Source of the DNA: Sinorhizobium fredii NGR234
GTDB taxonomy: Bacteria > Pseudomonadota > Alphaproteobacteria > Rhizobiales > Rhizobiaceae
Assembly (NCBI RefSeq): GCF_000018545.1
Contig: NC_000914.2
Coordinates: 186,001-250,000 of the forward strand
Direction of reading: 5' to 3'
Length of the DNA stretch: 64,000 bases
The notes under the pieces were generated by a model, which searched no databases, was not told the DNA's origin, and saw only the letters and a program-made list of their open reading frames with translations. Within the stretch, counting starts at the first letter, position 1, and every line of letters begins with the position of its first letter. The translations under genes were made by a program, and so were the position numbers. Of the stretch, positions 29,928 to 63,881 are shown piece by piece.

Positions 29928-31784
29928 TCAGCACCCCAAATGATACGCCGTACCCGCGCGCTTACTTTGTGTCGACCATTCTACCAGTTCTTCATTAATC
30001 CGCCGGAGTGCCGACACAAGGTAACGATTCTCCTCATAGGGTAGCACAGTCAAGCGCAGGTATCGGTCACCATACTTCATACACTGATTTTCACAGTTCT
30101 GGACCAACACGCCGTATCGCTTCGCAAGCATCGTGGCAACATGCTTCGCACTTGGCCAAGCCTCAGGAGTTCTGCAGAAGAGGTAGTTTGCTTGGGAAGG
30201 GTGGACCTCAAGCTCCGGGATAGTATCCAACATTCGAGAGAAGGACACAACGTCTGCTCGAGTGCGACGAAAGCTTGCTTCCCACTCCTCGCGAAATTCT
30301 GGCAAAATCCAAAGGAGATATTCTGCGATGCCATTTATGTTCCCAAGCGGAAGCCGCCGGCGAACTCCGTGGGTGAGTTGTTCGTCTTTCGAAGCAAGAT
30401 AGCCGATCTGGGCACCTCCCAGGCCCATTATCGCACCTAGGCTTTTAAGAATGACCATCTTTGGAAAAACGCTGAGAAGCTTCTCTACCGAATTTCCTTT
30501 CCCTGCCACTGAAAACTCTATGAACGTCTCATCGACCACGAGCCGGCACTTCTCTATAGCGAGTTGTGACGCCAACCATTCTATCTCCTGGACGGGAACC
30601 AAGCGTCCTGTTGGGTTGTTTGGGTTGACCAGTACAGCGACGGACGCTTGCCGCCTTTTTGCAAAATTTGCGAAAGCCTCCACGTCTAAGTCAAAGTTCT
30701 CAGGCGGAAGCTCGAAACGACTCACTTTATTTGGTTCGACGGCATCAATGTACTGCGCGGATGTTGGGGTTGGAATCACGATTCTCGGATCGAGGTAGCC
30801 GTAGAGGGCTTTAATTAACTCGCCCACGCCGTTACCAACTGCAAGATTTCGAGCCGGAAGATCTGTCATTTCCGAGAGCTTTGCTATAATATCGAGCTGG
30901 TCGGAGGGCTGAAGATAGAGCAGGTCCTGCAAACGTTCGCGCAGTCGGTCGACTACTGAGGCTGGAGGAAAATGATGATTACAGAGCAAGATGTGCTCAC
31001 TGGCTGGATATCGCCAGTTCCCCGCTTGCAATCGTTCAAGTATACTAAACTGGTCGCCGCTGGAACTAGACGCAAAATTTGCCGCCTCAAGATCGGTGGC
31101 ATCATTCACTCTCCTTACGTGTTGAGGGTCGGCATACATCAAGTAAATTTGATGGCGTTGAAGCCCTAAAGCGGTTTCGAAGAACTCCAGATCGTCATTA
31201 AACCGATGGGGGCGGATACGAGCAATCGCTCGGAGAAGTGCGGGATCAAATTTATAGATCCCGACGGGGCTAACGTCTGCAGAAGCACTTTCTCGAATGG
31301 GAGAGTCACCGGGCAACATGGCAGTAAGACGGCCTCCAATATCGCCCAATAAACGCAAGCATCGTCTGCGTTCTGATCTGCTTACTACCGTGATATTGCG
31401 GTCAGATGATCGCAATAAACGTTGAATCAGTGAGGGATCGATGACAGCGTTCTCAGTGAACACTAAAACTTGACCGTGGAACTCAGCGATTTCCGTAATA
31501 GTTGCTAGATCTATAAGGCGACCAGAGCCCGGGGTCGGCATGATACGTATCACGAGCTCCATGCGCTTCATGCGGTTGTTGAGAATACGTTTAACGTCGC
31601 CGATACCATCTAATGCGAACACGATCGTTTTTTGTACCCCCGCCTGTGCCAATTGAGAGACCAAGCGGGCAAGAATTGGCATGCCGCCGACCGAGCTCAG
31701 CGGCGCTGGACAGCGATCTTTCCAAGTCGAGATTATCAGTCGCGGGTCAGTGACAATAATCGCTAAACTCTGGACGTTGGGCAT
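29928..31784 (-). CDS. Nucleotidyltransferase-fold domain fused to HisC/CobD-type aminotransferase
   Basis: 618-aa two-domain protein. Residues 1-240 resemble an NTP-transferase (sugar or phosphocholine nucleotidyltransferase fold): [57 protein letters not shown]. The catalytic signature AAGxGxRL is replaced by VTDPRLIISTW and the metal-binding GD by EN, so nucleotidyl transfer is doubtful. Residues about 250-610 are a fold-type I PLP aminotransferase (HisC-like): VGNGVGELIKALYG, NPNNPTGRLVP, CRLVVDETFIEF, and the PLP lysine region VILKSLGAIMGLGGAQIGYL. It is divergent from an MFS gene. A stand-alone copy of the first domain is at 63147. Likely makes an amino-acid or amino-phosphate building block; substrate unknown. 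Confidence 0.85.
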   Translation of the reverse strand: MPNVQSLAIIVTDPRLIISTWKDRCPAPLSSVGGMPILARLVSQLAQAGVQKTIVFALDGIGDVKRILNNRMKRMELVIRIMPTPGSGRLIDLATITEIAEFHGQVLVFTENAVIDPSLIQRLLRSSDRNITVVSRSERRRCLRLLGDIGGRLTAMLPGDSPIRESASADVSPVGIYKFDPALLRAIARIRPHRFNDDLEFFETALGLQRHQIYLMYADPQHVRRVNDATDLEAANFASSSSGDQFSILERLQAGNWRYPASEHILLCNHHFPPASVVDRLRERLQDLLYLQPSDQLDIIAKLSEMTDLPARNLAVGNGVGELIKALYGYLDPRIVIPTPTSAQYIDAVEPNKVSRFELPPENFDLDVEAFANFAKRRQASVAVLVNPNNPTGRLVPVQEIEWLASQLAIEKCRLVVDETFIEFSVAGKGNSVEKLLSVFPKMVILKSLGAIMGLGGAQIGYLASKDEQLTHGVRRRLPLGNINGIAEYLLWILPEFREEWEASFRRTRADVVSFSRMLDTIPELEVHPSQANYLFCRTPEAWPSAKHVATMLAKRYGVLVQNCENQCMKYGDRYLRLTVLPYEENRYLVSALRRINEELVEWSTQSKRAGTAYHLGC

Positions 31785-32301
31785 TCTTCAACTCGCATTG
31801 CGGGGGCTAACATTACCAGATCACGTGCAAACTTTGATCATGCTGACCGAGAAGATAAGCATGTGGTCGGCACCGCCACTAACGTGAACAAAGGCATAAT
31901 CGCACTGAGCTTCGTGGAGAGTCTCAGCATAGAGCGCCATCTCGTGCACCTATTTACGTTGGTAGTATCGTGTTGGGCTATTCTTCGATTTCCATCAATG
32001 CCTATATCTTAGGAAGGAGGCGAGCGGGTGCTCCGCCTGGATCGCTGGAGGAGGTTTTCATTTTCAGCCTTAATCATGCGGCACGCCGTCGGAGCGAGTC
32101 TATAAACAGAATCAGACACTCGACTTGTTAGACTGGCGACACGGCCAAAAGCAGTGCCGATTGTCTGATGCGGGAAGGTGTCGGCGGCTACGGATACGCT
32201 GCTCTTGGACTTGTCGTGTGCTCGAAAGGACCCGGCCCCCCAGTAACACGTCCGGATGTCTCGTAAACTGCAACCAACATAGCGCCCGTGTGCAGGTCAC
32301 C
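31785..32301. other. Divergent intergenic region (aminotransferase fusion / MFS)
   Basis: 517 bases that must hold promoters for both divergent genes. No full sigma-54 consensus was found; CGGCACTGCTTTTGG near 32145-32160 on the minus strand is a three-mismatch match only. No gene seen. Confidence 0.4.
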
Positions 32302-33519
32302 ATGGAACGACAAATTTCATACAGAAGCCTTTCGAAGATACCTGGCCTATTCTCCTTGCTTCTTGCTGCAACCTTGTCCCGCCTGGCCGGACGCATGTTC
32401 GTCCTCACATTGGTGCTGTTCGCGCTGGCGCGTTTTTCGTCACCAGTTCTGGCTGGGTGGCTTACATTTGCAGCAATTGTCCCGGGCCTGATTGTAAGTC
32501 CGCTCGCAGGTGTTTTGCTTGATTGCGTAGGACCGACAATCGCAGTAAGGATCGACATGATCGCTAGCACTGCCTTCATTACCGCGATTAGCCTTGCCGG
32601 TTGGCTTGGTTGGTCCAGTCCTCCAGTCGTATGCACCCTGGCGATGCTATTTTCGCTAGCCGGCCCCTTAGGCATTGCTGGAATCCGCACGCTGTTGCCC
32701 CGACTCGTTCCACCACACGCGCTTGATCAGGCGAATGCGCTAGACACTGCGGTCTATTCCATCGTCGATGTGGTGGGGCCGGCGATGGCGGGCGGACTCG
32801 TCGGATGGCTCGGGCCAGAAGCTGCGATGTCTCTAATCGCTGCGGCCTGTGCAGGTGCCGCGGTCTGCTTATCCCAGGTCCAGCGCCTGCCAGGGCTGGC
32901 ATCCTCACGCACATCTTTGCTACGCCAAGCGATCAAAGGCATTTATGTGGTGGTCCGACAGCCCACATTACGCGGTCTGGCCGTCTCCCAGTCGCTGTAT
33001 CAAATGACATGGGGCGCCCTTCACGTGGTCATTCCGGTGTTCGTTGCCGGTAACTACACTGTTGCGGCGGGCAGTACAGTAGTAGGGCTTTTATGGGCTC
33101 TGGTCGGTATCGCCGGAGGTGTTGGTGCGCTCCTCGCTGGACATCTGTGCACCACTGGGCGCGAGCGCCACATTATGACCGCCGGAATGGCCGTAACCGC
33201 TTTTGCCACGTGGCCCATTGCAGCGGAATTCGGCTTCCGTGGCCTGACGATCGGCCTGTTGCTCGCTGGCGCAATGTCCGGTCCTATTGATGTCGCGATG
33301 CTGACCTTGCGCCAACGGCGCACCAATCCCCGACAGCTTGGTCGAGTGATGTCCATTTCGATAAGCGTAAACCAAGCGGGCTTCCCACTAGGAGCGGCCA
33401 TTGCTGGGGTAGTGATCACAGAATCGTTGTCGGCTATATTCGTTTTGGCGGGCATCACATCTGTGCTTGCGGCGATTGCAACCCTCTCCATCCCTCCCGA
33501 TGCAACGCCGGTGGCCTAA
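32302..33519 (+). CDS. MFS transporter (probable exporter)
   Basis: 405-aa major facilitator of the MFS_3/enterobactin-exporter-like type, inner membrane, 10-12 hydrophobic segments. Start MERQISYRSLSKIPG at 32302; an upstream in-frame start would add an unlikely 59-residue tail. Visible: LSRLAGRMFVLTLVLFALARF (segment 1), VSPLAGVLLDCVGPTIAVRID (loop 2-3), LPRLVPPHALDQANALDTAVYSIVDVVGPAMAGGL, and in the second half GRVMSISISVNQAGFPLGAAIAG. The LVPPHxLxxANxL and GP-x-GG pattern is typical of efflux members. Divergent from the aminotransferase fusion gene. It probably exports the product of this cluster. Resembles y4rN of pNGR234a from memory. Confidence 0.88.
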   Translation: MERQISYRSLSKIPGLFSLLLAATLSRLAGRMFVLTLVLFALARFSSPVLAGWLTFAAIVPGLIVSPLAGVLLDCVGPTIAVRIDMIASTAFITAISLAGWLGWSSPPVVCTLAMLFSLAGPLGIAGIRTLLPRLVPPHALDQANALDTAVYSIVDVVGPAMAGGLVGWLGPEAAMSLIAAACAGAAVCLSQVQRLPGLASSRTSLLRQAIKGIYVVVRQPTLRGLAVSQSLYQMTWGALHVVIPVFVAGNYTVAAGSTVVGLLWALVGIAGGVGALLAGHLCTTGRERHIMTAGMAVTAFATWPIAAEFGFRGLTIGLLLAGAMSGPIDVAMLTLRQRRTNPRQLGRVMSISISVNQAGFPLGAAIAGVVITESLSAIFVLAGITSVLAAIATLSIPPDATPVA

Positions 33520-41071: not shown

Positions 41072-41821
41072 ATGCAAAGCAACGTGACCACACTTGACGT
41101 TTCAAAGTACATTTCCTGCGCAGATGATGTAGCCCGCAACGCAGGCCTCAATATTGCAATGGGCGACGATTTTCGGCAGTACGTGGCGATCACCAGCAAA
41201 CTTCCAGGCAAATATCCAACTACTCCGAACTTCAATCCGAACTACTCTGATCTTTCACCTGAGAGCTCCTTCTGGATTGTAGGGCGTGACCAAGAAGACA
41301 GAGTCGCCCATGTACAGGCATTGCGACTATACGATCTATCCAAAACCACACTTGTTGAGCATCTGGAGTCGCTGCGCGCCTGCTTTGCGGACCCCGTCGG
41401 CAAATCAGGCCTTAACTCAACGTGTCGTTGTTACGCACCCAGCGCTCGCAGCATTACCGGGCGAGTCGCTTATCGCGGTGACATGTGGTTTCGCGACGAC
41501 TTTAGGGGTCGTGGTTTGCTAGCACCGCTTGGTCGCCTTGCATTCGCGCTTGCTTGGGTGAACTGGTCCCCTGATTTCATCTACTCACTTGTGGCCGAAT
41601 GGTACATCAAAAAGAGAATATTCGATCGATCAGGACACTGTCATCGAGAGCCCCATGGATCAGTCCTTCGGTTGCCAACATTAGGAATAGACGACGACGA
41701 ATGGCTCCTCTGGACGACTCGCGACGAGCTTCTCAAGATGCTCTCGAATACGTCAGAAGTCGCCCGTGAGTGGGAAAATCATGTTCGGGACAGCACGCTC
41801 CTTCACTCTGGCTCTTTATGA
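41072..41821 (+). CDS. GNAT-like N-acyltransferase-fold protein
   Basis: 249-aa protein from start MQSNVTTLDVSKYIS at 41072. The middle part VAYRGDMWFRDDFRGRGLLAPLGRLA resembles the GNAT motif A (R/Q-x-x-G-x-G/A acetyl-CoA loop, here RGRGLL), and SFWIVGRDQEDRVAHVQALRL fits the preceding strands, so an acyl-CoA-dependent N-acyltransferase is the best guess. It precedes the ATP-grasp gene on the same strand with a 124-base gap and probably shares its transcript. It could acylate an amino group on the cluster's product or give self-protection. Otherwise unrecognised; similar to a y4r-region gene of pNGR234a from memory. Confidence 0.6.
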   Translation: MQSNVTTLDVSKYISCADDVARNAGLNIAMGDDFRQYVAITSKLPGKYPTTPNFNPNYSDLSPESSFWIVGRDQEDRVAHVQALRLYDLSKTTLVEHLESLRACFADPVGKSGLNSTCRCYAPSARSITGRVAYRGDMWFRDDFRGRGLLAPLGRLAFALAWVNWSPDFIYSLVAEWYIKKRIFDRSGHCHREPHGSVLRLPTLGIDDDEWLLWTTRDELLKMLSNTSEVAREWENHVRDSTLLHSGSL

Positions 41822-41945: not shown

Positions 41946-43202
41946 ATGCGAAAAGCGCTCATTTTAATTGAAAATACGCGGACTAATGGCCGGTCGTACG
42001 TAGAAGCCGTCCGGCGTCTTCGGCTACATCCAATAATCCTGGCGGCAGATCCAGCACTTTACGACTATGTCGCGGCGGAACGCATTGAAGTCGCTCGCGT
42101 CGATACAACCAATTTGGATGCTCTGATCGGCGAATATTCTCGGCTGGGTAAGAGTTTCGACATAGCCGGAGTTACATCTGCCGCAGAGTCGTTCTATGCG
42201 ACAGTTGGCAAGATCTGTCGGAATTTCAATCTACCTGGACCTGATCCGGAATCAATTGAACAATGCTGCAATAAGGCCGCCCAACGTCAGGTCCTTGCGG
42301 CAGCCGGAGTTCCCGTGCCTGGCTATCGGTCGGCGACCACAGCCGCCGAAGTACAATGCGTTGCAGCGGAGATCGGCCTGCCAGCAGTACTTAAGCCTGC
42401 AGTCGGCAGCGGTAGCCGAGGAGTCCGCTTGTGTCGCGACGCTCGCGAGCTAGCTGAACACACAGATTATCTATTGGGCGGGAAGCACATGTGGCGATCT
42501 TCACCCGAGGTATTGGTAGAGCAGTTCGTGGATGGCCCTCATTACATCGCCGAGATCATGGGAGACGAAGTTATTGGAATAGGCATCACTGAGTATGGCC
42601 CACCGCCGCATTTCGTGTTCCGCCAGTTGACCTTTCCTGCACCCTTGACCGATGAGCAGTACGAGCGTGCCGTTGATGTTGTACAACGCTGCCTCCGGGC
42701 ACTCGGCCTTGGCTGGGGACCAACGAACATTGAGTTCCGGTGGACCGAGGTCGGTCCAGTCGTTATTGAAGTCAACCCGCGACTTGCTGGTAATCCTGAT
42801 CCGCAATTGGTTCAGCTGGCCTTCGACGTCGATCTCATCGGCGAGCACATCAAGCTTGCTATTGGTGAACAATGCAATTTGTCGAAGAGGCAGTCACGAA
42901 CAGCGACCGCCCGATCCTTGATTGCGGATCGCGATGGCACACTTGATTACATTGATGGTATCGACCGGGCGGCAGCTATACCCGGTGTCGCGGACGTCAA
43001 ATTGTATGTTAGACCAGGAACGCCAATAGTCAGAAATGGTGATTACTGTGACCGAATTGGATATGTCGTTGCTGTAGCGCCCTCGCGCTCCAGCGCTGAT
43101 ACGATAATTCAACGCGCAGTTGAATCAATCGATTGGTCTATTTCACCATTCTCGGACCTTCATGATCAGGAACAATATACTCCGCTGTACTTTCCGGACT
43201 AA
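41946..43202 (+). CDS. ATP-grasp amino-acid ligase-like protein
   Basis: 418-aa ATP-grasp enzyme of the BacD/L-amino-acid-ligase/carbamoyl-phosphate-synthase-like group. Start MRKALILIENTRTNG at 41946 with AGAGG upstream. N-terminal Rossmann-like part (HPIILAADPALYDY), then the ATP-grasp domain: KAAQRQVLAAAGVPVPGYR, LPAVLKPAVGSGSRGVRLC (ATP lysine and glycine loop), EVLVEQFVDGPHYIAEI (adenine-binding E-x-x-x-G), and metal site TNIEFRWTEVGPVVIEVNPRLAGN (E and E-x-N). A C-terminal lid of about 90 residues follows. Expected to join an amino acid to another amino acid or amine through an acyl phosphate. The nearby exporter and aminotransferases fit a dipeptide-type product. Resembles y4rH of pNGR234a from memory. 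Confidence 0.85.
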   Translation: MRKALILIENTRTNGRSYVEAVRRLRLHPIILAADPALYDYVAAERIEVARVDTTNLDALIGEYSRLGKSFDIAGVTSAAESFYATVGKICRNFNLPGPDPESIEQCCNKAAQRQVLAAAGVPVPGYRSATTAAEVQCVAAEIGLPAVLKPAVGSGSRGVRLCRDARELAEHTDYLLGGKHMWRSSPEVLVEQFVDGPHYIAEIMGDEVIGIGITEYGPPPHFVFRQLTFPAPLTDEQYERAVDVVQRCLRALGLGWGPTNIEFRWTEVGPVVIEVNPRLAGNPDPQLVQLAFDVDLIGEHIKLAIGEQCNLSKRQSRTATARSLIADRDGTLDYIDGIDRAAAIPGVADVKLYVRPGTPIVRNGDYCDRIGYVVAVAPSRSSADTIIQRAVESIDWSISPFSDLHDQEQYTPLYFPD

Positions 43203-43423
43203 CCAGTTGTGAGCTTTCCATAGACTATCCATCGGATCCGGACGAGAAAGCTGAGGCTGTCGACGCTTCAGTGATTCGAAACCGACCAGCAGACCCCATC
43301 TGGCCGGCTTAACGCGTGACTAGATAAGGCAGACATTCGATTTCTCGTAAGCGGGTAGGTCACCCCACGTATCTTTAGGGCCGCTGAACGGTCATTCTCT
43401 GCATGAGTCATGCGGAGAAACCT

Positions 43424-50452: not shown

Positions 50453-50661
50453 CACTGGCCATGAAGCTTCTCCAGGCGGGCGTTGACCTTTTAACGATCC
50501 AAGCCTGGCTCGGGCACGCACAGGTCGCTACAACCCATCGCTATGCCGCCGCCGATGTCGAGATGATGCGCAAAGGTCTCGAGAAGGCTGGAGTCGCCGG
50601 CGATCTGGGCATCCGTTTCCGACCAAATGACGCCGTGCTGCAACTACTGAACAGTATCTGA
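50453..50661 (+). pseudogene. ritC: RIT1 RitC, C-terminal part
   Basis: MKLLQAGVDLLTIQAWLGHA and TTHRYAAADVEMMRKGL, carrying the last His and the nucleophile Tyr of ritC, ending QLLNSI just before the right RIT1 repeat. In frame with the 5' part once RIT2 is removed. Confidence 0.88.
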
Positions 50662-50663
50662 CT

Positions 50664-50746
50664 ATTATGTGGCGGAGAATTCCAGATTAGACGGGCCTCG
50701 GCTGGCGCCGCGACGGCTCCGCCACATAATCTCGCCCGGCACATAA
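50664..50746 (-). repeat. 83-bp terminal inverted repeat of RIT1, right
   Basis: Inverted near-copy of 43921-44003, ending GGCACATAA. It lies directly after the ritC stop. Confidence 0.88.
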
Positions 50747-50874
50747 TCGCATTTGGACTAACCCGCTCCGCTACCGCGGAGCGGCAAGGAGGTCATGTAT
50801 TCAGTAGGAGCCCCAACTGCGCGACGATGGGACGGCTGTTTGGCAGCCTATTCCATCAGACAGAGGAGCTCGTC

Positions 50875-51753: not shown

Positions 51754-51760
51754 GCTCCCG

Positions 51761-52957
51761 ATGGCCCGTTCGGGGCCGGAAGTGGCGGATATCTTCCGTC
51801 GCTACGGCGAGGCCTATCGTGCCCAGCACACGTCGCTTTCGACCGCGCAGCGCCGCGTCATGACGGCGATCGAGTTGTGCCGGACCGCCGCGCTCGGTGG
51901 GCACGTCGAAGCGTGCGATCAATGCGGCCACCGGCGCATCGCCTTCAACAGCTGCCGCGACAGGCATTGCCCCCGCTGCCAATCGCTTGCCCGTGCGCAA
52001 TGGCTGGAGGATCGTCGCGCCGAGCTGCTCGAAACACAGTACTTTCACGTCGTCTTCACACTGCCGGAGGCCATTGCCGCCATCGCTTACCAGAACAAGG
52101 CGCTCGTTTACGGGCTGCTCTTCCGCGCCACCGCCGAGACGCTACGCACCATCGCTGCCGACCCCCGACATCTCGGCGCCGAGATCGGCTTCTTCGCCGT
52201 CCTGCACACCTGGGGGCAAAATCTACTGCACCATCCCCATCTGCACTGCGTCGTCCCGGGTGGCGGGTTCTCGCCGGACGGCACGCAATGGATCGCCTGC
52301 AAACCCGGCTTCTTCCTGCCGGTCCGCGTGCTCTCTCGCCTGTTCCGACGCTTGTTTCTGGAGCACCTGGAGAAAGCCTTCGACGGCGGCAAGCTGCAGT
52401 TCTTCTCCGACTTGCGAGCCCTCAACGAGCGCAACGCCTTCCGGCGCTATCTGGCGCCGCTGCGAAAGGCCGAGTGGGTCGTCTTTGCCAAGCCGCCCTT
52501 CGCCGGGCCCGAACAGGTGCTCGATTACGTCGGCCGTTATACGCACCGCGTTGCCATCTCCAACAACCGGCTCGTCGATATCGAAGATGGAGCGGTGCGT
52601 TTCCGCTGGAAGGATTATCGGCACGGCGACCGGCAAAAGGTCATGACCGTGTCGACCGACGAATTCATCCGCCGCTTTCTGTTACACGTCCTGCCTGAGG
52701 GCTTCCACCGCATCCGCTATTACGGTTTCCTCGGCAATCGCTATCGCGAACAAAAGCTTGCCCAATGCCGCGACCTGCTCGGCATGTCCGTTCCCGCCCC
52801 ATCGGAGACCCAGGCGCCGAAGGAGTACCGCGACCGCTACGAGGAACTCACCGGGCGTTCCCTCAGACAATGCCCGGCCTGTCATCAAGGGCAGATGATC
52901 ACCATCGAAATCTTCGACGGCGTCACCGGACCGCCGCGATGCTGGGACACGTCATGA
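51761..52957 (+). CDS. IS91-family transposase (HUH, Y1)
   Basis: 398-aa rolling-circle-type transposase. Start MARSGPEVADIFRRYG at 51761. N-terminal zinc-binding region with cysteines (CDQCGHRRIAFNSCRDRHC, CPRC), the HUH metal motif HHPHLHCVVPGGG, and the tyrosine motif VGRYTHRVAISNNR. C-terminal CPACHQGQM is another cysteine pair. Intact. Expected to nick and transfer single-stranded DNA. Confidence 0.93.
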   Translation: MARSGPEVADIFRRYGEAYRAQHTSLSTAQRRVMTAIELCRTAALGGHVEACDQCGHRRIAFNSCRDRHCPRCQSLARAQWLEDRRAELLETQYFHVVFTLPEAIAAIAYQNKALVYGLLFRATAETLRTIAADPRHLGAEIGFFAVLHTWGQNLLHHPHLHCVVPGGGFSPDGTQWIACKPGFFLPVRVLSRLFRRLFLEHLEKAFDGGKLQFFSDLRALNERNAFRRYLAPLRKAEWVVFAKPPFAGPEQVLDYVGRYTHRVAISNNRLVDIEDGAVRFRWKDYRHGDRQKVMTVSTDEFIRRFLLHVLPEGFHRIRYYGFLGNRYREQKLAQCRDLLGMSVPAPSETQAPKEYRDRYEELTGRSLRQCPACHQGQMITIEIFDGVTGPPRCWDTS

Positions 52958-53321
52958 AAGAAGCGCTTTCATCGTCACCGTCGCACCGTTCCGCCGGAAA
53001 CCGGTCGGTCCCGAGAAGGTGCGTGCCGTTGCGCCTACCGATCCTTCCCGGCAGGTTACAATGGCAATCTCAACCCCTGTCGAATTCCATATCGGCGCTG
53101 CTTTCGTCCCGTGCACCCAGCGGCGGCGTACGTCATCACCGCCCCTGCGACGCCTTTCCTTCGAGCCGCACCATTCAATACCCATAGGACCTGAAACGCA
53201 CCCGCGGCTTAGTCCAACACGTTTTTAGCGCACCGTCGCCATCCGCCTCGGCGCGCGCGTCAACGTGGATACACGCGACGCCACGCTAAAAACGCTCTGC
53301 ATTATGTGGTGCGGCACATAA
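52958..53321. other. Non-coding 3' end of the 9.4-kb insertion
   Basis: 364 bases with no convincing gene. It contains GTTTTTAGCGCACCG near 53220 and, about 60 bases later, CGCTAAAAACGCTC (a likely hairpin or end structure), then the terminal GTGCGGCACATAA. Confidence 0.5.
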
Positions 53322-53327
53322 CCGTTC

Positions 53328-53564
53328 AATGGTTCGCTTTACGTGTTCCGATCGAAGCGGGCGGACCGTGTTCGGATAGTTTGGTGGGACGGCAGCGGGG
53401 TCTGCCTCTATTCGAAAACTCTGGAAGAGCAAAGCTTCTGCTGGCCGGGCATATCGGCGGCGCGGATGCGTCTGGACCATTCGCAGTTGATGGCGCTTCT
53501 GGCCGGGCTCGATTGGAAAAAGATCCGCCCGGCCAAGGTCAGGCGGCCGTTGTTAACGGGCTGA
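53328..53564 (+). pseudogene. tnpB: IS66 TnpB, C-terminal part
   Basis: NGSLYVFRSKRADRVRIVWW and DGSGVCLYSKTLEEQSFCW to the stop at 53564 complete the tnpB frame begun at 43813 after removal of the insertion. Confidence 0.92.
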
Positions 53565-53640
53565 AACCGGCCTGCGACATGATGAATCATGTGGCTGTAA
53601 CGGTTGGGAAAACGGCTGTTTTTGTGCTCTATTGCCTCCC

Positions 53641-55260
53641 ATGGTTTTGCCTGTTGCCGATCTTCCCGACGACGTCGATGCGCTGAAAGCGATGATCCTC
53701 GCAATGGCCAAGGAGCGAGCTGCGAACGAGGCCCGACTTGCAGCCGCGGCGGCAGAGGTCGCCCGGCTGAAGGCCGTCGAGAAAAGCGCCAACGAGCGGA
53801 TCGCCAACCTCACGTCGATCCTGAAAGTTCTGCAGCGCACGCAACATGGCACGCGGTCCGAGCGGCTGCGCTTGGCTGTCAACGACGAACAGGTGTCCTT
53901 TGCGTTCGAGGAGGTCGAAACCGGCCTTTCGGAAATCCAGAGCGAACTCAACCGCGCGGCCGGGGACAAGCCGAAGCGTGCGCCGCGTCCGCGCAAGGGC
54001 TTTGCCGCACACCTCGAACGCATCGAGGAGGTTATCGAGCCGGAAGTCCCGGCCGACTGCGCGGGGCTGGAAAAGGTTCTGATCGGCGAGGACCGCTCCG
54101 AGCGGCTGGACGTCGTGCCGCCGAAGTTCCGGGTCATCGTGACGCGCCGCCCGAAATACGCTTTCCGAGGCCGCGACGGCGTGGTTCAGGCACTGGCGCC
54201 GGCACACCTCATCGAAAGCGGCCTGCCGACGGAGCGGCTGCTCGCCTATATCGCCGTGTCAAAATACGCCGACGGCCTTCCGCTTTACCGGCAGGAGGCG
54301 ATCTATCTGCGCGATGGTGTCGAGGTCAGCCGATCACTGATGGCGCAGTGGATGGGGCATCTGGGCTTCGAGTTGCAGATGCTCGCCGATTATATCCTGG
54401 AGCGCGTCAAGGAGGGCGAAAGGGTCTTCGCCGACGAGACGACCTTGCCCACCCTTGCCCCCGGTTCCGGGAAAACCACCAAGGCCTGGCTGTGGGCTTA
54501 CGCACGCGATGATCGACCCTATGGCGGAACCAGTCCGCCGATGGTGGCCTACCGTTTTGAAGACGGCAGGGGCGCCGATTGCGTGGCGCGTCATCTCGCC
54601 GGATTCAGCGGCATTCTGCAAGTGGATGGCTACTCAGCTTATACCAACCTGGCCAAGGCGCGGGCCAAAACCGGCAGCAATGAAACGATCCAGCTCGCAG
54701 GGTGCTGGGCGCACCTGCGCCGCAAGTTTTACGACCTGCACATCAGCGGGGTCTCGCAAGCCGCAACGGATTCAATCATCGCCATGACCGAGTTGTGGAG
54801 GCTCGAGGATGAAGTGCGCGGCAAGGATGCCGCAAGCCGCGCTGAACTCCGCCAGGAAAAGTCCTCGGCCATCGTCGCCAGCCTCTTCGAGCTGTGGGAA
54901 AAGGAGCTGGGCAAGGTCTCGGGAAAATCCAAAACCGCCGAGGCGATCCGCTACGCGCTCACCCGGCGCGAGGCGCTGGAGCGCTTTCTGACGGACGGCC
55001 GTATCGAGATCGACTCCAACATCGTCGAACGGGCGATCAGGCCCCAAACGATTACGAGAAAGAACAGTCTATTCGCCGGCAGCGAGGGCGGTGGACGAAC
55101 CTGGGCGACGGTGGCCACCTTGCTGCAGACCTGCAAAATGAATGGCGTCGATCCGCTCGACTGGCTCTCGCAGACCTTGACCCGCATTGCTCAAGGCTGG
55201 CCCGCATCCGAAATCGAAGCGCTCATGCCCTGGAACTTCAAGCCTGACGCTATCGGCTGA
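53641..55260 (+). CDS. tnpC: IS66 transposase TnpC
   Basis: 539-aa DDE transposase of IS66. Start MVLPVADLPDDVDALK at 53641 (a TTG three codons upstream is possible). N-terminal coiled coil with AKERAANEARLAAAAAEV, a cysteine-containing middle part, GERVFADETTLPTL with the first Asp, LQVDGYSAYTNLAK with the second Asp, and SNIVERAIRPQTITRKN with the catalytic Glu. Intact, so transposase itself could still act on the element's ends. Confidence 0.94.
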   Translation: MVLPVADLPDDVDALKAMILAMAKERAANEARLAAAAAEVARLKAVEKSANERIANLTSILKVLQRTQHGTRSERLRLAVNDEQVSFAFEEVETGLSEIQSELNRAAGDKPKRAPRPRKGFAAHLERIEEVIEPEVPADCAGLEKVLIGEDRSERLDVVPPKFRVIVTRRPKYAFRGRDGVVQALAPAHLIESGLPTERLLAYIAVSKYADGLPLYRQEAIYLRDGVEVSRSLMAQWMGHLGFELQMLADYILERVKEGERVFADETTLPTLAPGSGKTTKAWLWAYARDDRPYGGTSPPMVAYRFEDGRGADCVARHLAGFSGILQVDGYSAYTNLAKARAKTGSNETIQLAGCWAHLRRKFYDLHISGVSQAATDSIIAMTELWRLEDEVRGKDAASRAELRQEKSSAIVASLFELWEKELGKVSGKSKTAEAIRYALTRREALERFLTDGRIEIDSNIVERAIRPQTITRKNSLFAGSEGGGRTWATVATLLQTCKMNGVDPLDWLSQTLTRIAQGWPASEIEALMPWNFKPDAIG

Positions 55261-55822: not shown

Positions 55823-56803
55823 ATGCCAGATCTCCATCGACTTGCATTGAGCGCCCTGCAATACCGGCCGGTGGGGGCGCAGAGCGGTAATGCCTCATCG
55901 GCTGCCGCGTCGTGCACCGGTGACTACATGGCGGGCGATTCGTCACTCGAGCGAGACTGTGGAAGACTCGCGGATGGCTGCAGTTTCCCTCAAGTCCGCG
56001 GATCGGCCACCGGAGTTTCTGATCAGTCCTTGGGAGGATCGATCCATTTCTCAAACGCAGGTAGGGACGAGTATGTGGTCGAGCTCGGCCGGCTTCTCGA
56101 CCTGACAGATGGTGTCGCTCAACCAAAAAAATTGTTCGACCTTTTGTCGGCTTTTGCGTTTAAATTTGGCTGCAAGTGGCTGGCCTATGGTCCGCTTACA
56201 AGCGACCATAAGGCTCTGAACCGAGTGAAATGCGACTCGGAAGAGATTCTGAATTATCCTGATGGTTGGCGGGAGCGATGTCTCGAAATGGGTTACGAGA
56301 CGATAGCCCCTGTCATCAAAGAGAGTCGAATGGGGGCTGGCCCGATTCGATGGAGCGACATGTACAGTGACGCAAGCACCACTGAATACGAGCGGCGCAT
56401 GTTTGACGAGGCTGCAATGTTTGGCTTGAGGTCCGGCATTACTGTTCCATTGCGTGGCCCTAGAGGTAGCTGCGCGATCATGAGCTTTGCTCGGCATTGC
56501 GAGCGTGAATTCCACGACAGAACAATCGCCTATTTACAACTTGCCGCGACCCATTTCCATCTGAGAGTCGCGAAAATCGCGAATTTGAACGCCGTCCAAA
56601 AAATTCCTGCCCTTTCTTTAAGAGAAAAAGAGTGTGTGTTGTGGGTGGCACGAGGGAAATCTTCGTGGGACATAGGGGTTATTATGCGGATTTCCGAAAA
56701 TACTGTGAACTTTCACATTAAGAACGTGATGCGGAAGTTGGGTACTTCGAGCAGAACCGTCGCAGCGATTAAAGCAATAAGCCTTGGAATTATCGAATTG
56801 TAA
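55823..56803 (+). CDS. LuxR-family quorum-sensing-type regulator (possible solo)
   Basis: 326-aa regulator; start MPDLHRLALSALQYR with GGAGGAG upstream. About 90 extra N-terminal residues precede the TraR-like autoinducer domain (about 95-235); the C-terminal GerE domain is LSLREKECVLWVARGKSSWDIG with NFHIKNVMRKLG. Gapless alignment to TraR (offset 92) keeps Tyr145, Trp149, Pro163, Trp177 and Gly205 (TraR Y53, W57, P71, W85, G113), but TraR Y61 is Cys153 and the ligand-amide contact D70 is Ala162. No LuxI gene is in the window. It is upstream of an aminotransferase and S9A peptidase gene. Resembles y4qH of pNGR234a from memory. It may bind a non-AHL or unusual ligand. Confidence 0.88.
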   Translation: MPDLHRLALSALQYRPVGAQSGNASSAAASCTGDYMAGDSSLERDCGRLADGCSFPQVRGSATGVSDQSLGGSIHFSNAGRDEYVVELGRLLDLTDGVAQPKKLFDLLSAFAFKFGCKWLAYGPLTSDHKALNRVKCDSEEILNYPDGWRERCLEMGYETIAPVIKESRMGAGPIRWSDMYSDASTTEYERRMFDEAAMFGLRSGITVPLRGPRGSCAIMSFARHCEREFHDRTIAYLQLAATHFHLRVAKIANLNAVQKIPALSLREKECVLWVARGKSSWDIGVIMRISENTVNFHIKNVMRKLGTSSRTVAAIKAISLGIIEL

Positions 56804-57321: not shown

Positions 57322-58596
57322 ATGTCAAACGAGAGTAAGTCCAATTCACTCTACGCCTTCGAGAGCCTCGAATCGAACGTGCGATTTTATTCGCGATCGT
57401 TCCCCGTGGTGTTTGAGAAAGCCGCAGGCGCCATTCTGCATGACGAGAGCGGCCGCGAGTTTATCGATTTTCTCTCTGGCTCAGGCGTTCTTAACTACGG
57501 TCACAACGATCCGTATTTTCTTGACGAAGCGACTCAATACCTGAGATCAAATGGAATAATCCACGGGTTGGACATGGCTACGCCAGCTAAACGAGAGTTT
57601 ATGGAGTGTTTTGACGCCATAATATTGCGGCCACGTGGTCTGACTTACAAATTTCAGTTTTGCGGTCCTACCGGCGCTAATGCAGTGGAAGCTGCTTTGA
57701 AACTCGCGCGCAAGGCCACTGGACGGCACAGCATAGTTTCATTCACTAACGGCTTCCATGGGATGAGCTTGGGTGCGCTCGCGGTTACGGGCAATCGATA
57801 CTACCGGGACGCGGCAGGCTTTCCGCCAGCCGGGGTGGCGTTCATGCCCTATGACGGGTATTGGGGTGCCGATAACGACACTTCGGAATATCTCGATAAG
57901 GTGCTCGCTGATGCAAGCAGTGGCGTAGATGTACCTGCGGCAATCATTCTGGAAACCGTGCAAGGCGAAGGGGGGATCAACGCCGCGCGAAAAGAGTGGC
58001 TGCAGTCGATCCAGCGGATTTGCAGAAGCCATGGCATCCTGCTGATTGTTGACGACATTCAGGCAGGTTGCGGAAGAGCAGGCAATTTCTTCAGTTTCGA
58101 GTTTGCGGGTTTGTCGCCAGATGTTGTAGTCTTGTCGAAGTCTATAAGTGGCTGCGGACTGCCTTTGTCCCTTTTGCTGCTCAAGCCAGAATTAGACGTT
58201 TGGCGGCCGGGCGAACACAATGGGACTTTCAGGGGCAACAATCTTGCGTTCGTGACGGGTGCCGCTGCTTTGCGAAAGTACTGGACGAATGATGCGCTGT
58301 CTGCCCGTGTCATGGAGACAGGACGCATCATAGCGGAGCGCCTTCGGCAGGTGGCTCAGACCAACCGAGCTCGTAGCCTCTCCGTACGCGGAAGGGGCAT
58401 GATGTTGGGGCTCAATTGTGGTACAGGTAAGCTGGCTGAGAGGATCGTCCGCAAGGCCTTTGAAGAGGGACTTGTGGTAGAGCGATGCGGAGCGGAAGAT
58501 CAAGTTATCAAGCTTCTACCTCCTTTGACAACTGACGAGCAGACGCTTCGACGTGGTCTGGACATCCTGCACAAATCTGTGGCCGCAAGCATCTAA
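57322..58596 (+). CDS. Diaminobutyrate/EctB-like class III aminotransferase
   Basis: 424-aa class III PLP aminotransferase close to EctB/DABA aminotransferase, which makes L-2,4-diaminobutyrate from aspartate semialdehyde. Start MSNESKSNSLYAFES at 57322 with TGAGGAAA upstream. Motifs: FCGPTGANAVEAALKLAR (phosphate loop), FTNGFHGMSLGALAVTGN, ILETVQGEGGINAA, LLIVDDIQAGCGRAG (PLP Asp), and Lys273 in VLSKSISGCGLPLSL. Not accompanied by ectA or ectC, so ectoine synthesis is unlikely; it more probably supplies a diamino acid to the local pathway. Followed after 114 bases by the S9A gene. Confidence 0.87.
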   Translation: MSNESKSNSLYAFESLESNVRFYSRSFPVVFEKAAGAILHDESGREFIDFLSGSGVLNYGHNDPYFLDEATQYLRSNGIIHGLDMATPAKREFMECFDAIILRPRGLTYKFQFCGPTGANAVEAALKLARKATGRHSIVSFTNGFHGMSLGALAVTGNRYYRDAAGFPPAGVAFMPYDGYWGADNDTSEYLDKVLADASSGVDVPAAIILETVQGEGGINAARKEWLQSIQRICRSHGILLIVDDIQAGCGRAGNFFSFEFAGLSPDVVVLSKSISGCGLPLSLLLLKPELDVWRPGEHNGTFRGNNLAFVTGAAALRKYWTNDALSARVMETGRIIAERLRQVAQTNRARSLSVRGRGMMLGLNCGTGKLAERIVRKAFEEGLVVERCGAEDQVIKLLPPLTTDEQTLRRGLDILHKSVAASI

Positions 58597-58710
58597 AGCG
58601 GATCGCGACTCCGGTTCATGGGCGGGTTAAGCGCGATGCAGCGACGCATCGACTTGTTAGTGGAGGGCGGTGATGAATACGACGCTTGTTCTCATTTCAG
58701 GAGCGTTGTG

Positions 58711-60882
58711 ATGTGGGACAAGAGCCTGCGGCCACCGCTTCCGCGTGCCGAGCCACGGATCCGTGTCCTTCATGACGACGTCACTGTCGACCGGTATGGA
58801 TGGCTTCGCGACCGAGAGAATCCCGACGTCCGCGCGTATCTTGAAGCCGAAAACAGCTATGCAGAGCAAGCGACAGCTCACCTGAGAAGACTAAAGACTG
58901 AGCTCATCGCCGAGATCGAAGGGCGTCAGCCTTGCGAGGGCGCCACGCCACCGTTCCAAGTTGGGCCGTTTGACTACTTCCAGGGACACGAGCGGGGGCT
59001 GCCTCATCCGGTATGGTGGCGGCGGCCGGTGACCGGAGGTTCGGCCGAGCTTGTCCTCGACCCGAACGCGATACCCGGGGCCGACGTCTTCTATTGGCTC
59101 GGTGTGTTCGAGCCGAGTGACGACGGGCGTTACCTAGCGTTTAGCGTTGATCTCATCGGTGCCGAGCGCTACGAGTTAAGGGTGCGAGACATGTCCGACG
59201 GACGCGATGTCTGGCGAGACGCGGGTAGCGTCGGGCAGGTTGTCTGGGCCGCCGACAATCATACGCTCTTTTTCACACGGGAGCGGCCTGACCGGCGGCA
59301 ACATCATCAGATCGTCCGCTTGAACGTCGGGCGAGGAAACTCGGAGGTGGTGTTCGAGGAGGCAAACGAGCGACTGGCGGTGCTGGTTCGGCGTTCTCAG
59401 AGCGGCGCTTGGTTATTCCTCGACGTACTTACTACCTCGGACATGTCCTCTTACGTTCAGCGAGGGGCTGCAGAGGTGTGGTGTCTTCCCGCCGACGAGC
59501 CGGGAGGTCAGTGGCGCCGGATCGTGATGCGTGAACTGGGGCACCAGATCTATGCCGAGCACTGGTACGACAGGTTCCTGTTTCGGGTGGATGATGCTGG
59601 ACCGTACTGGCGGCTGGTGAGTGCGCCGATAGATGATCCCTCACCGTCGCGGTGGGAGGAGGTCGTGCCGCATCGAGCGGGCGTGACGATCGACGAGATC
59701 CACGTGCTCGAACAGCACTTGGTCCTCCTGGAACGAGAAGGCCTCCGTCCTCGCCTGATCTCGCGTAATCGAAGCGGGCGGGTTGGCGCTGTGATCGTTC
59801 CCGACGAGCCGAGCTGCACTATAAGGGTCGGCCTGTCGGCCGGTGGTTGCTATTCGGCCGCACGACATCCGTTCCGAAGCTCGAAGTTGACCTACTCGGT
59901 TAGCTCGTTTGTGACGCCCGACACCTTCATCGAGCATGATTTCGCCAACGACCGATCGGTGGTCCTGTGCGAGGCCCGCGTTCCCGGGTATGATGCCACT
60001 CAATACCTTGCAACGGTCGTAATGGCAGAGGCTGAAGACGGGGTGCAGGTCCCGATCTCGTTGGTCGCGCGGCGCGATCGAACGAGCCCTGGACCAGTGT
60101 TATTGAGTGTGTACGGCTGCTACGGGATACCGAGATTGCCCTCGTTCCTCGCTTGGCCCTCTTCCATGACGGCGCGTTTGAGCCTGCTCGACCGCGAAGT
60201 AGCTTTCGGCATCGTGCACGTGCGAGGGGGTGGCGAGCTCGGACGCCCATGGCACGACGCGGCTACCCGCGACCAAAAGCGCATTACTCACACAGATCTC
60301 ATCTCCGCTACCGAGGGGCTTATTGAGCGTGGGTTCGCCACCCGCGACGGCGTCGTTATTGAGGGAAAGAGTGGTGGCGGGGGTACGGTGCTTGCAACGG
60401 CCGTCTTTCGGCCCAACTTGTTCCGCGCCGTGGTTGCCGAGGTCCCACTGGCCGACATCATAGATACCCAGCTGGACTCGACAATGCCGTACACGCTAAA
60501 GGAAACGGCAGAGTATGGAGATCCCCAGGACGCCTACGAGTATCGGTATCTGCGCAGCTACGACCCGTATTACAACCTCAGCCCCGAGCGATCTCTTCCA
60601 CCTACATACGTCGACGCCGCGCTCGACGATGGCCAAGTGATCTATTACCAACCTGCTCGTTACGTGGCGCAGCGTCGGTCCTGCGCGACCGATCGCGACC
60701 CCGATCTTGTCTTCCGCATCCGGATGGTGGGCGGACACAGCGGCCCGTCACATGGGCCTGGCATAGCGGAACAAGCAGCTTTTCGCATGGCCTGGGTTCT
60801 CGACCAGCTCCGAAGTCACGCTCCGCCCCCATCAAGGAAGGCGCGCTCCGCCGCCAGAAGGTCCACCGATCCAGTGAGATAG
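58711..60882 (+). CDS. Prolyl oligopeptidase family (S9A) peptidase, second copy with altered C-terminus
   Basis: 723 aa, closely similar to the gene at 7372-9489 throughout. Start MWDKSLRPPLPRAEP at 58711 with CAGGAG upstream; the ATG overlaps a TGA (TGATG) ending a 12-codon ORF (MNTTLVLISGAL), itself behind GGAGGGCGGTG. Triad complete and at the same positions: Ser554 in EGKSGGGG, Asp640 in LDDGQV, His676 in GGHSGPSHG. The last 20 or so residues after VLDQLRSHA are read from the antisense of a ritB relic (60825 on), so the native end was lost and replaced; the catalytic domain is unaffected. Downstream of luxR-like and aminotransferase genes. Confidence 0.9.
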   Translation: MWDKSLRPPLPRAEPRIRVLHDDVTVDRYGWLRDRENPDVRAYLEAENSYAEQATAHLRRLKTELIAEIEGRQPCEGATPPFQVGPFDYFQGHERGLPHPVWWRRPVTGGSAELVLDPNAIPGADVFYWLGVFEPSDDGRYLAFSVDLIGAERYELRVRDMSDGRDVWRDAGSVGQVVWAADNHTLFFTRERPDRRQHHQIVRLNVGRGNSEVVFEEANERLAVLVRRSQSGAWLFLDVLTTSDMSSYVQRGAAEVWCLPADEPGGQWRRIVMRELGHQIYAEHWYDRFLFRVDDAGPYWRLVSAPIDDPSPSRWEEVVPHRAGVTIDEIHVLEQHLVLLEREGLRPRLISRNRSGRVGAVIVPDEPSCTIRVGLSAGGCYSAARHPFRSSKLTYSVSSFVTPDTFIEHDFANDRSVVLCEARVPGYDATQYLATVVMAEAEDGVQVPISLVARRDRTSPGPVLLSVYGCYGIPRLPSFLAWPSSMTARLSLLDREVAFGIVHVRGGGELGRPWHDAATRDQKRITHTDLISATEGLIERGFATRDGVVIEGKSGGGGTVLATAVFRPNLFRAVVAEVPLADIIDTQLDSTMPYTLKETAEYGDPQDAYEYRYLRSYDPYYNLSPERSLPPTYVDAALDDGQVIYYQPARYVAQRRSCATDRDPDLVFRIRMVGGHSGPSHGPGIAEQAAFRMAWVLDQLRSHAPPPSRKARSAARRSTDPVR

Positions 60883-62887: not shown

Positions 62888-63146
62888 GGCTCGTCCTCCT
62901 GTTATGAGGATCGGCCCGGCCTGTCCGAGCAACCCTCGGAAGAACAGTCTAGGGCGAGCCACCTCACTCCCGAAGAAGGACATACGGTCTTACGGAACAT
63001 TGACCCATCAATACACCTCAACTCTTTTGCGCACTTCACCTACAGTCCGACTTCGAAGTCGCACCAATACTATTTGCCCTGGTAGTAGATAGAACGCTCG
63101 CCCTCAGATAGATTTTGAGGAAGTTCTCAGTCCGAGGATCGACGAA

Positions 63147-63881
63147 ATGCGCGAAGTTCAGAGCTTGGGGATTGTTATTACCGACCCACAACAGATGATC
63201 TCGACGTGTAAGAGGCGCTTTTCAGCAGCTCTAGGTGTGGTTGGCGGCACGTCGGTTCTGCGACGCTTATTATCTCAATTGGCACACGCTGGGGTGCAGA
63301 GGACGATGGTGCTGGCCCGAGAAACTTTAGGCGAAATAGCCGGCGACCTCGGTGGCGAGCTGAATGGGATGGAGCTCTGCTTACGCGCTCTGCCCAGGCC
63401 GAATGCCGGACGTCTCGTGGACGCAGCAACGGCAAATGAGATCGCCCACGTTGATGGCGACGTGCTGGTGTTCACGGAGAATTTGGTCATAGACTTCGAT
63501 GTGATCGAACGCCTGTTGCGGTCGCAAGACCGCAATATTGCCGTAGTCAGCAAAACACAGGGCGGACGATCCCTGCGCGTACTGGCGGACGATGCGCTGC
63601 GCCTTACAGCAGTGCTACCCGACCGCCCTTCAAGCCAGCATCACGCCTCTGCAGATTGGAATCTAATGGGTGTTTATAAGTTTGACCCTGCATTCGTTCG
63701 GGCCATTGCTAGAAACCGCCGGTATCGCGCGCATGACGATCTCGAGTTCTTTGAAACCGCTTTGGGTATTCATGCACACCCGATGCACCTCATGTGTGCT
63801 GAACCTCAACGTGTGAGAACGGTGAACGATGCAGTTGATCTAGCAGCGGCCAATTACGCGTTCAGGTCCAGTTCCGATTAA
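63147..63881 (+). CDS. Stand-alone nucleotidyltransferase-fold protein (paralogue of the fusion's first domain)
   Basis: 244 aa, start [16 protein letters not shown]. It aligns along its whole length with residues 1-245 of the fused protein at 29928-31784: same TDPxxMIST start, [60 protein letters not shown] and the end [20 protein letters not shown], stopping where the fusion's aminotransferase linker begins. As in the fusion, the AAGxGxRL signature is absent. It could be a true single-domain protein, with an aminotransferase encoded separately beyond the window, or a truncated fusion. Possibly a ligand-binding rather than catalytic domain. Confidence 0.75.

What the first reader, a model, noticed from the sequence alone, without database searches (positions are those of the whole stretch)
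29928..63881. A dispersed peptide-type biosynthetic locus is visible once mobile DNA is removed
Seen: in order, the non-IS genes are an aminotransferase fusion divergent from an MFS exporter, then GNAT, ATP-grasp ligase, LuxR regulator, EctB-like aminotransferase, S9A peptidase and a nucleotidyltransferase-like domain, nearly all on the plus strand. IS elements account for most of the 34 kb. Known: bacilysin-type clusters combine an ATP-grasp amino-acid ligase (BacD), an MFS exporter (BacE) and an aminotransferase (BacF). Inference: the locus makes an exported dipeptide-like signal or antimetabolite, perhaps containing diaminobutyrate. I know of no described product.
Basis: partly seen in the sequence, partly recalled or inferred. 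Interest (0 to 1): 0.75.

Follow-up and report, generated by a model that had tools for sequence, protein, structure and literature searches.

The report
Scattered diaminobutyrate-peptide genes in a rhizobium
On the symbiosis plasmid of a nitrogen-fixing root-nodule bacterium, transposons have split up a set of genes that in a related bacterium lie side by side and look built to make the unusual amino acid 2,4-diaminobutyrate and join it to something else; the product is unknown, but the set gives a new, testable meaning to a diaminobutyrate enzyme already shown to matter in pea nodules.

Summary
The genes are real and where stated, and the EctB-centred part is a genuine gene set. The window lies on pNGR234a of Sinorhizobium fredii NGR234. 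In Ensifer aridi the core runs unbroken on one strand in 6 kb: nucleotidyltransferase-like gene, LuxR, EctB, ATP-grasp ligase. In 7 of 8 EctB-bearing Sinorhizobium genomes, NGR234 included, a ligase of this family lies within 20 kb of EctB. Some other rhizobia add an aspartokinase-like gene and an aspartate-semialdehyde dehydrogenase, completing an aspartate-to-diaminobutyrate route. The R. leguminosarum orthologue, Dat, is a published diaminobutyrate aminotransferase of pea nodules; on its plasmid three ATP-grasp ligases and an exporter follow, not mentioned in the parts of that paper I saw. Best reading: a variable diaminobutyrate-conjugate pathway. It is not bacilysin-type by the one test made: the ligase scores far under the BacD model. 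The fusion aminotransferase was near EctB in none, and the S9A peptidase in 1, of 22 other loci; the peptidase resembles one in a catabolic block. The NGR234 ligase has no clear orthologue, 3 of 14 plasmid loci have no ligase near EctB, and no product or function was tested.

The parts
57322..58596 (+). EctB: diaminobutyrate--2-oxoglutarate transaminase (y4qG by recall)
   Evidence: TIGR02407 668 bits, cut-off 552.2; 74% identical to the UPM791 EctB taken as Dat
55823..56803 (+). LuxR-type regulator with autoinducer-binding domain (y4qH by recall)
   Evidence: PF03472 and PF00196; pocket Asp replaced by Ala; 81-86% identical neighbours of EctB in S. saheli, E. aridi, Ensifer IC4062 and G220
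41946..43202 (+). ATP-grasp ligase of the L-amino-acid-ligase type (y4rH by recall)
   Evidence: LAL_C2 64.5 bits, cut-off 29.4; nearest solved relative 3vot, BL00235; within 20 kb of EctB in 7 of 8 genomes as a family; no clear orthologue
41072..41821 (+). GNAT-like protein, about 124 bp before the ligase
   Evidence: no domain hit; relatives named GNAT; next to a ligase of this family in L020, L021, L022
63147..63881 (+). stand-alone nucleotidyltransferase-like protein (y4qD by recall)
   Evidence: within 6 kb of EctB in 5 of 6 genomes with both; 244 aa; no domain hit
32320..33519 (+). MFS exporter (y4rN by recall), possible member
   Evidence: PF07690; 74-75% identical copies 2-18 kb from EctB in R. 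sp. 007, R. gallicum IE4872 and R. sp. T136; elsewhere with unrelated neighbours
21279..22289 (-). second ATP-grasp protein, D-Ala ligase-like, outside the given coordinates, possible member
   Evidence: PF07478; 78% identical copy in the EctB locus of R. gallicum IE4872 and 72% in that of S. medicae ml42
29928..31784 (-). fusion of a nucleotidyltransferase-like and a HisC/CobD-like aminotransferase domain (y4rO by recall), probably not a member
   Evidence: PF00155; near EctB in 0 of 22 loci; 62% relative beside CDP-alcohol genes in M. mediterraneum
58618..60882 (+). S9A peptidase (y4qF by recall), probably a neighbour from the catabolic block
   Evidence: PF02897/PF00326; 70% copy at 7351-9471; in R. 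gallicum with GabD, RidA, DadA, Alr and a dipeptide ABC transporter
43403..55260 (.). mobile DNA between ligase and LuxR: IS66 parts, tyrosine recombinases, IS91-type

Best explanation
A transposon-scattered member of a variable family of diaminobutyrate-conjugate pathways on rhizobial symbiosis plasmids. Proposed mechanism: aspartate semialdehyde (in NGR234 from housekeeping enzymes, in some relatives from a dedicated kinase-dehydrogenase pair near EctB) is transaminated by EctB to L-2,4-diaminobutyrate; an ATP-grasp ligase of the L-amino-acid-ligase type activates a carboxylate as acyl phosphate and joins it to an amine, diaminobutyrate being the likely partner; the GNAT-like protein may acylate; an MFS carrier may export; the LuxR-type protein switches the set on, probably answering something other than an ordinary acyl-homoserine lactone. 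The ligases are exchangeable cargo, so strains would make different products around one building block. Shown here by sequence: family membership of EctB, ligase, LuxR and MFS; linkage of EctB with the ligase family and the nucleotidyltransferase-like gene; purifying selection. Shown by others for the UPM791 enzyme: DABA-AT activity and diaminobutyrate in pea nodules. Inferred: ligase substrates, acylation, export, regulation, and that NGR234 still makes a product.
For: Core contiguous in E. aridi. Ligase family within 20 kb of EctB in 7 of 8 genomes against about one expected, P 5e-5 or less under uniform placement; nucleotidyltransferase-like gene in 6 of 8 EctB genomes against 3 of 25 others. 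11 of 14 plasmid loci have a ligase within 20 kb, 8 the kinase, 6 the dehydrogenase, 8 a LuxR (these loci were partly chosen for nearby hits). UPM791: EctB followed by LAL-type ligase, D-Ala-ligase family, unknown, LAL-type ligase, MFS. Dat activity and nodule diaminobutyrate: PMC10228743 (abstract, sections 19 and 25). NifA-dependent EctB-type genes: PMC8305402 (passages), PMC3538637 (section 12). dN/dS below 0.43 in all 17 unsaturated comparisons.
Against: No product, substrate or expression of NGR234 genes was seen. The NGR234 ligase is on a long branch with no clear orthologue and its dS to relatives (1.1-1.6) is far above that of EctB, LuxR and the nucleotidyltransferase-like gene (0.13-0.52), so the set did not travel as one unit. 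No kinase, dehydrogenase or aminomutase of the relatives' type was found on pNGR234a. Ligase is absent near EctB in 3 of 14 plasmid loci (L093-L095) and 2 of 8 unbiased ones (G232; G071, whose contig ends close by), and present without EctB in 14 of 25 genomes. The M. loti msi260 mutant was fully effective (PMC3538637).
Confidence: 0.5

Rival explanations
1. EctB here serves nutrition only, as its authors propose for Dat: homoserine or aspartate passes through diaminobutyrate to beta-alanine and pantothenate; the ligases nearby belong to other small pathways.
For: PMC10228743 (abstract, section 25): dat mutant grows worse on homoserine, diaminobutyrate relieves pantothenate auxotrophy, beta-alanine falls. 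In R. indigoferae EctB runs into gltB, glnA, trxA, DadA, RidA and GabD with no ligase; R. acidisoli and R. etli Mim1 also lack a ligase within 20 kb.
Against: Ligase-EctB linkage in 7 of 8 genomes; three ATP-grasp genes and an MFS gene follow the UPM791 gene itself.
Confidence: 0.22
2. In NGR234 the set is a decaying remnant: insertions have parted it and it no longer makes anything.
For: About 12 kb of mobile DNA parts ligase and LuxR; dedicated precursor genes not found on the plasmid; the DadA-like gene upstream matches only residues 183-414 of 414.
Against: All eight frames are open; dN/dS 0.10-0.42 for EctB, LuxR and the nucleotidyltransferase-like gene, although this averages over time before the insertions.
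Confidence: 0.16
3. An opine- or rhizopine-like system: bacteroids make and export the conjugate, free-living sister cells import and degrade it with the S9A peptidase, D-amino-acid dehydrogenase, RidA and semialdehyde dehydrogenase block.
For: Both halves lie on the NGR234 plasmid and DadA plus RidA within 25 kb of EctB in 3 of 14 plasmid loci (L020, L087, L095); R. gallicum IE4872 adds alanine racemase and a dipeptide ABC transporter.
Against: 0 of 8 unbiased loci have DadA plus RidA near EctB, though several are cut by contig ends; NGR234 DadA is truncated; no common substrate known.
Confidence: 0.09
4. Bacilysin-type dipeptide cluster.
For: ATP-grasp ligase, MFS and aminotransferase genes in one region.
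Against: Ligase 33.6 bits against the BacD cut-off of 850; fusion aminotransferase near EctB in 0 of 22 loci. BacA, BacB, BacC and BacG relatives were not searched for.
Confidence: 0.02

Closest known systems
Dat (C189) of Rhizobium leguminosarum bv. viciae UPM791, PMC10228743
   Same: EctB of pRlvC, taken here as Dat, is 74% identical; EctB family; symbiosis plasmid; near nif genes there.
   Different: UPM791 has kinase, dehydrogenase, two LAL-type ligases, a D-Ala-ligase family gene and MFS nearby but no LuxR of this type within 20 kb. The authors assign a homoserine/pantothenate role. That this gene is C189 is inferred from plasmid, family and mass: 46.0 kDa computed, 47.1 kDa reported with its tag.
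L-amino acid ligases such as BL00235 (3vot)
   Same: ATP-grasp plus LAL_C2; best solved relative, E 6.7e-18.
   Different: Distant; substrates unknown; rhizobial family is diverse.
Bacilysin cluster (BacD, BacE, BacF)
   Same: ATP-grasp ligase, MFS and an aminotransferase together.
   Different: Fails the BacD model; class III EctB is the linked aminotransferase.
Ectoine pathway (EctABC)
   Same: EctB.
   Different: No EctA in the genome at E<=0.001; one EctC-like gene on another replicon.
NifA-dependent ectB of Paraburkholderia phymatum (Bphy_7266), PMC8305402
   Same: EctB (52%) followed by a GNAT gene on a symbiosis plasmid; both transcripts and diaminobutanoate fall without NifA.
   Different: Inside a hydrogenase cluster; no listed ligase near; the window's GNAT-like protein is not among the 15 best tblastn hits there.

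Membership tests
Diaminobutyrate aminotransferase (EctB) | Curated TIGR02407 cut-off | tested here: met
   668 bits, cut-off 552.2
Diaminobutyrate aminotransferase (EctB) | Enzyme activity | not testable with these tools
   Shown by others for the UPM791 enzyme (PMC10228743, section 19)
L-amino-acid ligase | ATP-grasp domain and LAL_C2 domain above cut-off | tested here: met
   PF13535 48.8 (cut-off 27), PF18603 64.5 (cut-off 29.4)
L-amino-acid ligase | Joins free amino acids with ATP | not testable with these tools
   none
Bacilysin cluster | BacD alanine--anticapsin ligase | tested here: not met
   NF053745 33.6 bits, cut-off 850
Bacilysin cluster | Anticapsin genes bacA, bacB, bacC, bacG | not tested
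   no search made
Ectoine biosynthesis | EctA with EctB and EctC | tested here: not met
   EctA 0 of 1 genome; EctC-like gene only on C3
AHL-binding LuxR receptors | Autoinducer-binding and GerE domains | tested here: met
   PF03472 104.9 bits, PF00196 67.8 bits
AHL-binding LuxR receptors | Asp of the ligand pocket (role recalled) | tested here: not met
   Ala in the window and in 18 of 28 aligned rows; Asp in 10 rows and in pNGR234a TraR
AHL-binding LuxR receptors | Cognate LuxI gene beside it | not tested
   TraI lies at C1:534836-535462; the window was not scanned for LuxI
Rhizopine-like system | Synthesis and catabolism genes for one compound on one plasmid | tested here: inconclusive
   Both gene blocks present, common substrate unknown

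The most novel reading that the evidence does not exclude
Rhizobial symbiosis plasmids carry a family of exchangeable diaminobutyrate-conjugate pathways (ATP-grasp, NRPS/PKS or EctC-like tailoring around one EctB hub) whose exported products are strain-specific nodule metabolites, with a matching peptidase and D-amino-acid catabolic block that lets sister cells feed on them: a peptide counterpart of rhizopines. Dat of R. leguminosarum would then be the entry enzyme of such a pathway and not only a vitamin enzyme.
Probability: 0.12. Interest if true: 0.85.

Novelty: new variant of a known kind. Interest (0 to 1): 0.6.

Why it matters
A diaminobutyrate aminotransferase is known to raise pea-nodule performance and competitiveness (PMC10228743), and EctB-type genes depend on NifA in two other symbionts (PMC8305402, PMC3538637), yet the purpose of the diaminobutyrate is open. 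The recurring ligase, exporter and regulator genes beside it say what to look for: a diaminobutyrate conjugate in nodules. If found, it would be a new class of symbiosis metabolite with exchangeable ligases.

Tried and rejected
Bacilysin reading: rejected on the BacD score and the lack of linkage of the fusion aminotransferase. Ectoine: no EctA. Siderophore of the rhizobactin 1021 kind: not pursued; an IucA/IucC gene lies near EctB in R. gallicum IE4872, but no such gene was looked for in the window. Direct NifA control: of 40 upstream stretches scanned, none of the 14 before EctB has a TGT-N10-ACA or sigma-54-like motif; single motifs occur before or at the start of LuxR (L019, L023), the nucleotidyltransferase-like gene (L023, L026), GNAT (L020) and between the fusion and MFS of the window. 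Orthology of the NGR234 ligase with the ligase beside EctB in E. aridi: not supported by a 30-row tree or by dS. Restriction to nodulating genomes: of 218 family genomes EctB (E<=1e-170) occurs in 2, both among the 13 with NodC; in the genus 31 of 33 have NodC, so nothing more follows. Rhizolotine, a nodule compound I recalled, gave 0 papers. The names y4rH, y4qG, y4qH, y4rO, y4qD, y4qF gave 0 papers; all y4 names here are recalled. A gene beside the aminomutase in relatives that I called an adenylation domain in a note is a condensation domain.

Selection: the 14 plasmid loci L018-L020, L022, L023, L086-L088, L091-L096 were partly picked because other hits lay near, so they illustrate. The unbiased set is the 7 other EctB-bearing genomes of 33 in the genus plus G071, several cut by contig ends. 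In the 14 records with the nucleotidyltransferase-like gene, the two S. numidicum and the two T1470/T1473 records look like near duplicates. The placement test assumes uniform placement on one plasmid of 300-536 kb. In the 30 loci, five non-rhizobial EctB loci (L044-L048) showed none of the other set members.
Full report
What the window is. It is G000:C1:186001-250000 of a 536,165-base replicon in a 6,891,900-base genome. A RepA-like frame at C1:101-1324 and a TraI-like frame at C1:534836-535462 (minus strand) fall at the coordinates printed for repA and traI of pNGR234a in PMC5114275 (passages; check, where the names rest on position and my reading of the sequence). The window is therefore from the symbiosis plasmid of Sinorhizobium fredii NGR234. 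The y4 gene names are recalled and come from no call.

Checking the observation. Eight non-mobile genes lie between 29928 and 63881, seven on the plus strand; they make up 10,383 of 33,954 bp. Pfam confirms six of the eight family readings. The GNAT-like and nucleotidyltransferase-like genes have no Pfam or NCBIfam hit; their reading rests on names of relatives. The final gene is a stand-alone protein with 30 hits in the protein search, a fragment listed without source among them, and a paralogue of the N-terminal part of the fusion at 29928-31784 (55%).

Is it a set? In E. aridi (L025) the nucleotidyltransferase-like gene (6644), LuxR (8421), EctB (9998) and an ATP-grasp ligase (11465-12691) run on one strand; other ATG-started frames of >=100 aa between them are antisense. 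In 33 genomes of the genus, EctB (E<=1e-170) occurs in 8, the ligase family (E<=1e-80) in 22 and the nucleotidyltransferase-like gene (E<=1e-30) in 9, of which G045 and G245 are partial or carry a stop. All 8 EctB genomes have a ligase against 14 of 25 others (Fisher p 0.031), and 6 of 8 have the nucleotidyltransferase-like gene against 3 of 25 (p 0.0017). A ligase lies within 20 kb of EctB in 7 of 8, NGR234 included; uniform placement predicts 0.9-1.6, P(>=7) 5e-5 or less. The nucleotidyltransferase-like gene is within 6 kb of EctB in 5 of the 6 genomes with both. In eight neighbourhoods outside NGR234 (seven of the genus plus G071, up to 20 kb each side, some cut short) there is a ligase in 6, a LuxR of this type in 5 (C-terminal pieces only in G231 and G243), the nucleotidyltransferase-like gene in 4, GNAT-like in 2, kinase in 2, dehydrogenase in 1, aminomutase in 1; the fusion, the S9A peptidase and this MFS type in none. 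In 14 plasmid loci, partly chosen for nearby hits: ligase 11, LuxR 8, kinase 8, dehydrogenase 6, nifH 5, nucleotidyltransferase-like 4, aminomutase 3, this MFS type 3, DadA plus RidA 3, GNAT-like 2, S9A 1, fusion 0. Among 14 plasmid records with the nucleotidyltransferase-like gene, 11 have a >=70% EctB within 10 kb.

What relatives add. S. meliloti M270 has ligase, KamA-family radical-SAM gene, ligase, aspartokinase-like gene, aspartate-semialdehyde dehydrogenase, EctB, LuxR. S. medicae ml42, R. gallicum IE4872 and Mesorhizobium AR07 also have the kinase-dehydrogenase pair. The dehydrogenase passes its curated cut-off; the kinase resembles aspartate kinases over its first 230-320 residues but is below the cut-off of all 25 families it hit, and the aminomutase is just below the KamA cut-off (195.7, 199.2). 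In R. leguminosarum Norway and UPM791 and in R. indigoferae the pair lies across nifHDKEN from EctB. S. mexicanum and R. anhuiense T24 have genes annotated ectoine synthase and other ATP-grasp types (PurD-like, PGM1-like) near EctB, with NRPS/PKS genes in the former. So EctB looks like a fixed hub with variable ligating and tailoring genes.

The published enzyme. PMC10228743 (abstract, sections 19 and 25, passages) reports that C189/Dat of the UPM791 symbiosis plasmid has diaminobutyrate aminotransferase activity, that a dat mutant has no diaminobutyrate in pea nodules, and that it performs and competes less well on pea. The authors favour homoserine use and pantothenate supply. 'ATP-grasp', 'LuxR' and 'operon' occur 0 times in the main text. 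On pRlvC the ectB gene is followed on the same strand by a LAL-type ligase, a D-Ala-D-Ala-ligase family protein, an unknown, a second LAL-type ligase and an MFS gene. That this ectB is Dat is inferred (see Closest known systems). In P. phymatum, ectB and the GNAT gene after it drop by 7.6 and 8.1 log2 units without NifA and diaminobutanoate falls (PMC8305402, passages). In M. loti R7A msi260 is strongly expressed in nodules, poorly in a nifA2 mutant, and its mutant was fully effective (PMC3538637, section 12). R. tropici was noted to have ectB without the rest of ectoine synthesis (PMC3557214, passage). An ATP-grasp, MFS, ATP-grasp row is listed for S. meliloti plasmid pSmeLPU88b (PMC10194956, passage).

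State of the NGR234 copy. Frames are open. dN/dS is 0.10-0.13 for EctB, 0.26-0.36 for LuxR and 0.31-0.42 for the nucleotidyltransferase-like gene (three relatives each), 0.17-0.19 for the ligase (three), 0.22 for MFS, 0.14 for the fusion, 0.13 for the S9A peptidase (one each); GNAT-like and the second S9A were saturated. dS separates two histories: 0.13-0.52 for the core trio, 1.1-1.6 for the ligase. The 30-row tree leaves the NGR234 ligase unplaced. tblastn of the relatives' kinase, dehydrogenase and aminomutase against the whole plasmid gave nothing at E<=1e-10. The NGR234 product cannot be read off from a relative.

Regulator. The protein aligns with LasR over 141-326. Tyr and two Trp that I recall as pocket residues are kept; the Asp that I recall as the amide contact is Ala here and in 18 of 28 rows (14 of 24 without repeated genomes), while 10 rows keep Asp. 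An ordinary AHL ligand is doubtful for this branch. No NifA or sigma-54 motif stands before EctB in 14 of 14 loci.

Genes that probably do not belong. The S9A peptidase beside EctB has a 70% copy at 7351-9471, which sits with a truncated DadA, RidA and GabD; R. gallicum IE4872 has GabD, RidA, DadA, alanine racemase, S9A and a dipeptide ABC transporter in a row. The fusion's closest plasmid relative (62%) lies in M. mediterraneum beside a cytidylyltransferase, a CDP-alcohol phosphatidyltransferase and a GHMP kinase. Synthesis and breakdown genes lie within 25 kb of each other in 3 of 14 plasmid loci and 0 of 8 unbiased ones; this is the thin base of the bold reading.

Print status. From titles, abstracts and the passages read, none listed a paper that describes this gene set as a biosynthetic locus. 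The library holds open-licence papers only, and seven papers were opened in part.

Noticed in passing
7243-13895: Second S9A peptidase, a DadA-like gene matching only residues 183-414 of 414, RidA and GabD: a peptide/D-amino-acid catabolic block, shared in content with R. gallicum IE4872.
   Followed up: partly
44024-50312: Two sets of three overlapping recombinase-like frames facing each other (2 of 6 confirmed as phage integrases); similar triplets lie near EctB and a ligase in R. tropici CIAT 899.
   Followed up: no
19207-20739: CapA-like gene with a 99.8% identical copy at C1:170941-172470.
   Followed up: no
29928-31784 and L011:17205-21827: The fusion's 62% relative in M. mediterraneum sits beside a phosphocholine cytidylyltransferase family gene, a CDP-alcohol phosphatidyltransferase and a GHMP kinase: possibly a different, phosphodiester-type pathway.
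   Followed up: no
L091 and L096: EctB loci of S. mexicanum and R. anhuiense T24 carry genes annotated ectoine synthase together with PurD-like or PGM1-like ATP-grasp genes, hinting at cyclic amidine products.
   Followed up: no
L009:14085-22886: In S. fredii CCBAU 83666 a ligase of this family lies with a cysteine-synthase-like gene, a 900-aa lyase-family protein whose N-terminal part is 31% identical to the window ligase, and a PLP aldolase.
   Followed up: no
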